Shown: piece by piece, positions 6,082 to 6,303 of the stretch
Layout of the letters: each line of letters opens with the position of its first letter
Numbering within the stretch: position 1 is the stretch's first letter
NCBI GenBank assembly: GCA_028704035.1
Contig: JAQVLS010000074.1
Location: 1 to 7,522, forward strand
Direction: 5' to 3'
Length of the DNA stretch: 7,522 nt
From: Desulfotomaculaceae bacterium
GTDB lineage: Bacteria; Bacillota; Desulfotomaculia; Desulfotomaculales; Pelotomaculaceae
The notes under the pieces: generated by a model
Told to the model about the DNA's origin: nothing
The model's database searches: none
The model's input: only the letters and a program-made list of their open reading frames with translations
Program-made: the position numbers and the translations under genes

Positions 6082-6303
6082 TTAAACCGATACCACTTCT
6101 TTAATTTCCGGCACTTCCTGCTTGAGCAACCGCTCAATACCCTGTTTGAGGGTTATTTTAGCGCCAGGTCAGCCACTACAGGCTCCCCTGAGGCGCACCT
6201 TTACCAAACCGTTTTCGGTAACATCAACAAGTTCAACATCGCCGCCGTCTCTTTGAAGAAAAGGACGCACCTTGCCCAATGCTATTGCAACTTTTTCTTT
6301 CAC
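6082..6303 (-). CDS. Nfu/NifU C-terminal-type Fe-S protein with in-frame UGA, predicted selenoprotein
   Basis: Seventy-three residues from GTG (6303-6301) to TAA (6084-6082), with one in-frame TGA at 6171-6169 (residue 45). The RBS is strong (AAGGGAGGT). The protein is a stand-alone NifU C-terminal domain: KVRPFLQRDGGDVELVDV, then VKVRLRGACSG-X-PGAKITLKQGIERLL. In this family the CxxC pair binds a [4Fe-4S] cluster at a dimer interface for transfer to apoproteins. Here Cys42 is kept and Cys45 is the UGA, so the product would be CxxSec. It matches the Cys copy at 6516-6737 at 63 of 73 positions. Downstream of the UGA only 3 of 28 residues differ, all mildly, while 16 codons differ silently. No other in-frame TGA occurs in clpB or acs, so code reassignment is unlikely. 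Alternatives are a recent nonsense mutation or a sequencing error. Without Sec insertion the product would stop at 44 residues and lack half the cluster motif. Confidence 0.85.
6122..6137 (-). promoter_or_regulatory. Candidate bacterial SECIS hairpin downstream of the UGA
   Basis: On the minus strand UUGAGC-GGUU-GCUCAA is a perfect 6-bp stem with a GGUU tetraloop. The loop starts 37 nt after the UGA codon at 6171-6169. Bacterial SECIS elements lie just downstream of UGA inside the coding region and need a G at the start of the apical loop, usually 16-37 nt away, so this is at the far limit. In the Cys paralogue the same place can pair only weakly (GAG/CTC). A second hairpin, ACCCU-CAAAC-AGGGU (6153-6139), lies closer but has no loop G. 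Confidence 0.5.

What the first reader, a model, noticed from the sequence alone, without database searches (positions are those of the whole stretch)
6082..6303. Predicted NifU-type selenoprotein: UGA replaces the second cysteine of the Fe-S CxxC motif
Seen: the only in-frame stop is TGA at 6171-6169, exactly at the Cys45 position of GACSG-C-PGA, one base away from the cysteine codons TGC/TGT. The frame is intact to a TAA at residue 74, with a strong RBS. After the UGA the protein is 25 of 28 identical to the Cys paralogue, while 16 of those codons differ silently, so selection has kept the downstream part as protein. Known: Cys-to-UGA replacement at a redox or metal site, with a Cys homologue present, is the classic mark of bacterial selenoproteins. 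Inference: the product has CxxSec, which would give a [4Fe-4S] site with a selenolate ligand, or a redox-active selenenylsulfide instead of a cluster. I do not recall an Nfu-type selenoprotein family with certainty; a related Fe-S carrier (HesB-like) is known in Sec form.
Basis: partly seen in the sequence, partly recalled or inferred. Interest (0 to 1): 0.95.

Follow-up and report, generated by a model that had tools for sequence, protein, structure and literature searches.

The report
Selenocysteine version of iron-sulfur carrier Nfu
A small bacterial gene of the Nfu family, whose known members hand iron-sulfur clusters to other proteins, has a UGA stop codon exactly where one of its two metal-binding cysteines should be; more than seventy related genes share that codon together with a conserved RNA hairpin, so it is predicted to be read as the rare amino acid selenocysteine, which would make it a selenoprotein family missing from the published lists we read.

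Summary
Confirmed and enlarged. The ORF at 6303-6082 (minus) has one internal stop, TGA, at codon 45, the second Cys of the Nfu CxxC; the frame runs on to TAA. In its order 73 of 109 genomes with an Nfu hold such a copy: 76 of 135 copies have one in-frame TGA, none TAA or TAG. In all Sec copies read from DNA the motif is CxxU. All 75 distinct Sec copies keep ATTGAGCGG-NN-GCTCAA at one distance; 5 of 146 Cys copies have it. The hairpin fits the published bacterial SECIS rules for stem, loop and spacing. The genome has selA, selB and tRNA-Sec; selD was not found in this 84%-complete assembly. So it is very probably a selenoprotein (about 0.97), absent from three published lists (119, 87 and 9 families). 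In 51 of 109 genomes it is the only Nfu found, and A-type carriers are rare in relatives, so it probably does ordinary [4Fe-4S] carrier work with a Cys/Sec ligand pair (inferred); a redox CxxU role remains open. No experiment shows Sec.

The parts
6082..6303 (-). Sec-type nfu gene (GTG start, 73 residues with UGA read as Sec, TAA stop); single NifU-like domain
   Evidence: (PF01106, 97.7 bits)
6169..6171 (-). in-frame UGA, codon 45, second position of CxxC (C42-S-G-U45)
   Evidence: same codon position in relatives
6178..6180 (-). codon 42 (TGT), the first Cys of CxxU; Cys in 85 of 85 Sec rows
6122..6137 (-). predicted SECIS hairpin TTGAGC-GGTT-GCTCAA; loop starts after 37 nt from the UGA
6313..6318 (-). 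GGGAGG, ribosome-binding-site-like, before the GTG start
   Evidence: sequence
6052..6075 (-). terminator-like hairpin after the TAA
   Evidence: consensus scan, weak
6516..6737 (-). tandem Cys paralogue of nfu (CSGC), upstream of the Sec copy on the same strand, without the hairpin

Best explanation
The gene at 6303-6082 (minus strand) carries an in-frame UGA at the second cysteine codon of a 73-residue Nfu-type protein, and this UGA is predicted to be read as selenocysteine through a hairpin in the mRNA, so that the product would likely hold a [4Fe-4S] cluster with one cysteine and one selenocysteine per subunit. Shown here: the intact frame, purifying selection on both sides of the UGA, a TGA copy in 73 of 109 Nfu-bearing genomes of the order and in 9 genomes of a second family, and a hairpin of SECIS form in 75 of 75 distinct copies. 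Inferred: SelB with Sec-tRNA(Sec) decodes this UGA; the protein dimerises and passes clusters from the IscU-type scaffold to clients as other Nfu proteins do; the Sec selenolate replaces a cysteine thiolate as cluster ligand, perhaps easing cluster release or repair. Recoding as Sec: about 0.97. Sec as cluster ligand given recoding: about 0.65-0.7.
For: Machinery: SelA, SelB, tRNA-Sec in the genome. Conservation: 76 of 135 Nfu copies in the order have one TGA, none TAA/TAG; CxxU in all read. Of 198 phylum genomes with Nfu, the 23 with a listed TGA copy are all SelA-positive; 0 of 76 genomes with no or only a weak SelA hit has one among the matches listed. Selection: after the UGA outside the hairpin pS 0.73, pN 0.21 in 44 Sec copies; in the hairpin and ACC/GGG codons pS 0.14 in Sec against 0.85 in 31 Cys copies. 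Hairpin: 75 of 75 Sec, 5 of 146 Cys; 88 of 22,500 synonymous shuffles have it; it meets the published loop, stem and spacing rules. Positive control: the 33 selD hits over cut-off in 31 genomes searched each hold one TGA, and in 12 of 20 selD loci the best stem has a G-U-N loop 33 nt after the UGA. Carrier role: PF01106; fold of plant CnfU 2z51 and human NFU1 2m5o; 27 of 58 Nfu-bearing relatives have only Sec copies, 25 of those have no A-type carrier hit, and 23 of the 25 have an IscU-type scaffold hit. CxxC of other Nfu proteins binds [4Fe-4S] at a homodimer interface (PMC5014551, passages).
Against: No experiment shows Sec. selD was not found in this assembly (84% complete). The stem never varies, so there is no covariation (0 of 8 pairs), and in some copies (L007-L009 and several of the second family) the lowest-energy fold of the longer segment is not this hairpin. 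36 of 109 genomes of the order show Cys copies only. SelA and SelB are near universal in the order, so they do not discriminate inside it. CxxU is also a redox motif of selenoproteins (PMC13188914). Mrp/ApbC-type P-loop ATPases (PF10609) occur in 31 of 31 genomes searched, so Nfu need not be the only carrier. The model's confidence is lowest at the motif (mean pLDDT 66 for residues 41-50). Two database proteins are identical to one Sec copy but have Cys (P0072, P0075); their DNA was not seen.
Confidence: 0.65

Rival explanations
1. It is a selenoprotein, but Cys42-Sec45 is a redox pair (selenenylsulfide), used for example to reduce persulfides or disulfides during cluster assembly or repair, rather than a cluster ligand pair.
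For: CxxU and UxxC are named as redox-related motifs of prokaryotic selenoproteins (PMC13188914, section text). A paper passage calls Nfu1 a persulfide reductase, citing others (PMC5741617). In 22 of 109 genomes a Cys copy is present besides the Sec copy and could do the carrier work.
Against: In 51 of 109 genomes only Sec copies were found and 56 of 60 relatives have no A-type carrier hit, so a purely redox protein would leave the Nfu carrier role empty there. Fold and surrounding residues are those of cluster-binding Nfu.
Confidence: 0.27
2. The Sec copy is a specialised paralogue for selenium or metal trafficking (for example handing selenium to SelD) and not for ordinary Fe-S delivery.
For: A Cys-type nfu lies beside a second selB in G016, G019, G020 and G023, and in G033 the Sec nfu is 1.3 kb from selD (C10).
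Against: Around the Sec copy no selenium gene recurs in the 20 loci: acetyl-CoA synthetase, nitrilase-like, ECF sigma/anti-sigma, MotB, phosphoglycerate mutase. The Sec copy is the only Nfu found in 51 of 109 genomes.
Confidence: 0.05
3. The UGA ends translation: pseudogene, sequencing error, or a 44-residue truncated product with low near-cognate read-through.
For: UGA is an ordinary stop in these organisms (26 of 112 open frames of 300 codons or more in 28 loci of relatives end in TGA).
Against: A TGA copy in 73 of 109 genomes, never TAA/TAG; purifying selection after the UGA; hairpin in 75 of 75 distinct Sec copies.
Confidence: 0.03

Closest known systems
Nfu / NifU C-terminal domain proteins (PF01106; NfuA, CnfU 2z51, human NFU1 2m5o)
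   Same: fold, DGGDVEL core, first Cys and spacing of the motif
   Different: second Cys codon is UGA; the gene carries a SECIS-like hairpin after it
HesB-like selenoprotein (A-type carrier related; TIGR01911, motif UxGP in PMC13188914 Table 1)
   Same: a Fe-S biogenesis-type protein in Sec form; the PF01521 hits in 4 of 60 relatives (3 over cut-off) all contain TGA and may be this protein
   Different: another family (PF01521 against PF01106); rare here, where the Sec-Nfu is common
UGA-containing selD of the same genomes
   Same: UGA followed by a stem with a G-first loop about 33 nt on (12 of 20 loci)
   Different: an enzyme of selenium activation, unrelated sequence
Other CxxU selenoproteins (GrdA, SelW-like, HdrA, FrhD; list in PMC13188914)
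   Same: Cys-x-x-Sec motif
   Different: unrelated families

Membership tests
bacterial selenoprotein | in-frame UGA aligned with Cys of homologues, conserved in relatives | tested here: met
[quoted passage not shown]
   6 bp, GGNN, 37 nt in 75 of 75 copies (it is the longest exact stem in 74 of 75); the spacing is at the upper limit
bacterial selenoprotein | SECIS minimum free energy <= -7.5 kcal/mol | tested here: inconclusive
   -14.6 to -18.6 for 55 nt from the UGA in 8 copies, but mean -7.25 for a 27-nt window, and some long folds use other pairings
bacterial selenoprotein | selA, selB, selC (tRNA-Sec) in the genome | tested here: met
bacterial selenoprotein | selD in the genome | tested here: inconclusive
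   not found in this 84%-complete assembly; over cut-off in 29 of 31 genomes searched
bacterial selenoprotein | selenium shown in the protein | not testable with these tools
   needs 75Se or mass spectrometry
Nfu (PF01106) | NifU-like domain over the curated cut-off | tested here: met
   97.7 bits against 27
Nfu (PF01106) | Nfu fold | tested here: met
   model mean pLDDT 83.5 (Cys put at 45); 2z51 TMq 0.87, 2m5o TMq 0.84
Nfu (PF01106) | CxxC motif | tested here: not met
   CxxU: the second Cys codon is UGA; hence a variant, not a standard Nfu
Nfu (PF01106) | binds and transfers a [4Fe-4S] cluster | not testable with these tools
   inferred from family
NfuA (TIGR03341) / NifU proper (TIGR02000) | full-length equivalog over cut-off | tested here: not met
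   51.8 of 269 bits and 55.7 of 273 bits: single domain only

The most novel reading that the evidence does not exclude
In a whole order of bacteria the step that delivers [4Fe-4S] clusters runs on a selenoprotein: a Sec-Nfu dimer bridges a cluster through two Cys and two Sec, a natural selenolate-ligated carrier cluster, so that iron-sulfur biogenesis in these cells depends on selenium.
Probability: 0.4. Interest if true: 0.92.

Novelty: new variant of a known kind. Interest (0 to 1): 0.8.

Why it matters
Genes with an in-frame UGA are easily cut short by gene callers. This one is common (73 of 109 genomes with an Nfu in the order) yet absent from the lists of 119, 87 and 9 selenoprotein families that I read. 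It places selenocysteine at a supposed cluster ligand of a general Fe-S carrier, in organisms of which 56 of 60 searched show no A-type carrier hit. That makes two questions testable: what a selenolate ligand does to cluster transfer, and why Cys and Sec forms have swapped. Named genomes that hold it include Desulforamulus putei DSM 12395 (record title and motif) and, by matching contig length, Desulfofarcimen acetoxidans DSM 771 and Desulfofalx alkaliphila.

Tried and rejected
Pseudogene or sequencing error: rejected by a TGA copy in 73 of 109 genomes. General reassignment of UGA: rejected, because UGA ends 26 of 112 long open frames in 28 loci of relatives. A conserved neighbour that would name the function: none found in the loci; by lineage the gene lies near acetyl-CoA synthetase, nitrilase-like, ECF sigma, motB or phosphoglycerate mutase genes. 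Compensatory changes in the hairpin: none, the stem is invariant in the 17 aligned. A single origin of Sec by tree: not resolved; the tree of 221 rows of about 73 residues needs at least 18 changes of state and is weak. No Rfam family matched the hairpin (only a tRNA at the gathering threshold). Plasmid search: 61 records with a match, five listed, at 55-67% identity, not looked at further. Public annotation: of 21 Sec copies at least 76% identical to ours, 19 were absent as full-length proteins among the 120 listed of 2916 hits, and 2 (L027, L029, same protein) match P0072/P0075 with Cys; for Cys copies 8 of 11 were found. This is only indicative. Literature: 8 searches; no Nfu-type selenoprotein appeared in their listings; the library lacks most subscription papers and supplements could not be opened. 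A survey of another phylum was not run (one search failed).

Rows dropped: 85 Sec rows (83 with the hairpin) became 75 distinct copies after merging overlapping duplicates and dropping short pieces: the spurious fragment L137, the copy L305 broken by Ns (these two lack the hairpin) and the contig-end copy L074 (which has it). One search left 2 of 83 matched segments without a readable motif. One search's alignment had a wrong row (L048) and was replaced. One search does not list its weakest matches, so 'no TGA without SelA' holds for listed matches only; the Fisher p of 1.1e-5 ignores relatedness, and my threshold between strong and weak SelA hits was set by eye.

Full report
WHAT IS THERE. 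On the minus strand at 6303-6082 lies a frame with a GTG start, a GGGAGG site before it, a TGA at codon 45 (6171-6169) and a TAA at codon 74. With the UGA read as a residue it scores 97.7 bits to PF01106, NifU-like domain. A Cys paralogue with CSGC at the same place lies upstream on the same strand (6737-6516). After the UGA 25 of 28 residues agree between the two, 16 of them through different codons.

IS THE UGA SENSE? The genome (G000, 84% complete) has SelA at C32:9115-10215, SelB beside it at C32:7147-9033 and tRNA-Sec at C11:5216-5309 with anticodon tca. SelD was not found here, but is over cut-off in 29 of 31 genomes searched, and each of the 33 hits over the cut-off holds one TGA. UGA is an ordinary stop in the relatives (26 of 112 long frames).

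CONSERVATION. In 60 relatives 58 have an Nfu, 43 of them a copy with exactly one TGA. A survey of the order (113 genomes held) lists 135 copies in 109 genomes: 76 copies with one TGA (3 of them partial matches), 59 with none, no TAA and no TAG; 73 genomes have a TGA copy, 51 only such copies, 22 both kinds, 36 Cys only. In the DNA fetched, all 85 Sec rows are CxxU, with the first Cys kept and Gly before the UGA; none of the 322 domain hits behind that count was skipped. Nine genomes of a second family (f46), in the same phylum but outside the order, have it too, each with the hairpin. In the phylum draw of 398 genomes 198 have an Nfu at E <= 1e-15; the 23 with a listed TGA copy all have SelA; the 76 Nfu genomes with no or only a weak SelA hit have none among listed matches. 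A separate scan of titled genome records gave 80 loci with 83 matched segments: 78 CxxC, 3 CxxU, 2 unreadable; the three CxxU are Desulforamulus putei DSM 12395, a Desulfotomaculaceae MAG and a Desulfovirgula MAG, all with the hairpin, which no Cys copy of that set has. That scan favours Cys forms because a stop breaks the match.

SELECTION. For 44 Sec copies the codons after the UGA outside the hairpin show pS 0.73 and pN 0.21, much as before the UGA (0.73 and 0.19) and as in 31 Cys copies (0.83 and 0.23). The part after the UGA is therefore kept as protein.

SECIS. At a fixed distance after the UGA all 75 distinct Sec copies read ATTGAGCGG-NN-GCTCAA, a 6-bp stem with loop GGTC (44), GGGT (22), GGAT (5) or GGTT (4); 5 of 146 Cys copies have it. 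In the first 44 copies ATT, GAG, CGG and CTC are used 44 of 44 times, and pS over the hairpin and ACC/GGG codons is 0.14 against 0.85 in Cys copies. Synonymous shuffles give the stem in 88 of 22,500. RNAalifold on 17 copies finds the same stem, without covariation because it never varies. [quoted passage not shown] here it is 4 nt, GG, 6 bp and 37 nt, the last exactly at the limit. In selD of the same genomes 12 of 20 loci have as best stem one with a G-U-N loop at 33 nt. Against: in some copies the lowest-energy fold of a longer stretch is another one. Cys copies that keep the stem (L013, L016, L200, L203, L222; L222 with an odd loop closing) may be remnants after Sec-to-Cys change, or chance.

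WHAT IT LIKELY DOES. The model with Cys at 45 (mean pLDDT 83.5, but 66 around the motif) matches plant CnfU 2z51 (TMq 0.87) and human NFU1 2m5o (TMq 0.84). The Nfu CxxC binds a [4Fe-4S] cluster at a homodimer interface (PMC5014551, passages). Among 58 Nfu-bearing relatives 27 have only Sec copies; 25 of these have no A-type carrier (PF01521) hit, and 23 of the 25 have an IscU-type (PF01592) hit. The A-type hits in 4 of 60 relatives (3 over cut-off) all contain TGA, as the known HesB-like selenoprotein would. Mrp/ApbC-type ATPases (PF10609) are present in 31 of 31 genomes searched, so other delivery routes may exist. The simplest reading is that the Sec form does the ordinary Nfu job, with Cys42 and Sec45 of each subunit holding the cluster. 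This is inferred. A redox pair is the main rival.

CONTEXT. No selenium or Fe-S gene recurs beside the Sec copy. In the family of the window an acetate--CoA ligase gene (TIGR02188, 1003 bits for the window's own) is near it in 10 of 10 loci compared; nitrilase-like and ECF sigma/anti-sigma genes recur in the order; motB and phosphoglycerate mutase elsewhere.

KNOWN OR NEW. The 2026 review lists 119 families and subfamilies (Table 1, PMC13188914 section 7 parts 1 and 2 of 3), the 2022 review 87 (PMC9312934 section 13), deep-Sep nine new ones (PMC12013277 section 7): none is named Nfu, NifU, PF01106 or COG0694. The words NifU and Nfu do not occur in the main texts of these three nor of PMC5029168, PMC1794560 and PMC1088965 (term look-ups; of the last three I saw passages only). 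NCBIfam shows no selenoprotein model among the matches of either copy. The listings of searches held no paper on it. The nearest listed are the HesB-like protein and a GenBank-annotated nitrogenase component I subunit; both are other proteins. Subscription papers and supplements were not available, so an earlier report cannot be excluded.

VERDICT. By the computational tests applied, a real and widespread selenoprotein family in a protein class for which I found no earlier report; selD in this assembly and the SECIS energy rule were inconclusive. The recoding is near certain; the chemistry of the Sec is open.

Noticed in passing
L250-L254 (G016:C54, G019:C64, G020:C68, G023:C154 and C218): A second selB (TIGR00475, 360 bits in L250, with SelB winged-helix domains) sits beside a Cys-type nfu (CGTC or CGNC), with a FlpD-type gene close by; in L251 and L253 a formate dehydrogenase alpha gene follows. 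A selB-nfu-FlpD module.
   Followed up: partly
L013 (G006), L016 (G047), L200 (G368), L203 (G168), L222 (G366): Cys-type nfu copies that still carry the full hairpin, possible remnants of Sec-to-Cys changes.
   Followed up: partly
G042:C10 and G052:C30 (L025, L048): Two neighbouring Sec-type nfu copies in one genome, both with the UGA and the hairpin.
   Followed up: partly
60 relatives: A-type Fe-S carriers are nearly missing: 4 of 60 genomes have a PF01521 hit (3 over cut-off), and each of the 4 contains TGA, two TGAs in G025.
   Followed up: no
window 4030-6006 (+): An acetate--CoA ligase gene (TIGR02188, 1003 bits) that converges on the nfu pair; a homologue lies near the nfu in 10 of 10 loci of the same family.
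   Followed up: partly
P0072, P0075: Database proteins identical to the Sec copy of L027/L029 but with Cys at the Sec position; either true Cys variants or converted letters.
   Followed up: no
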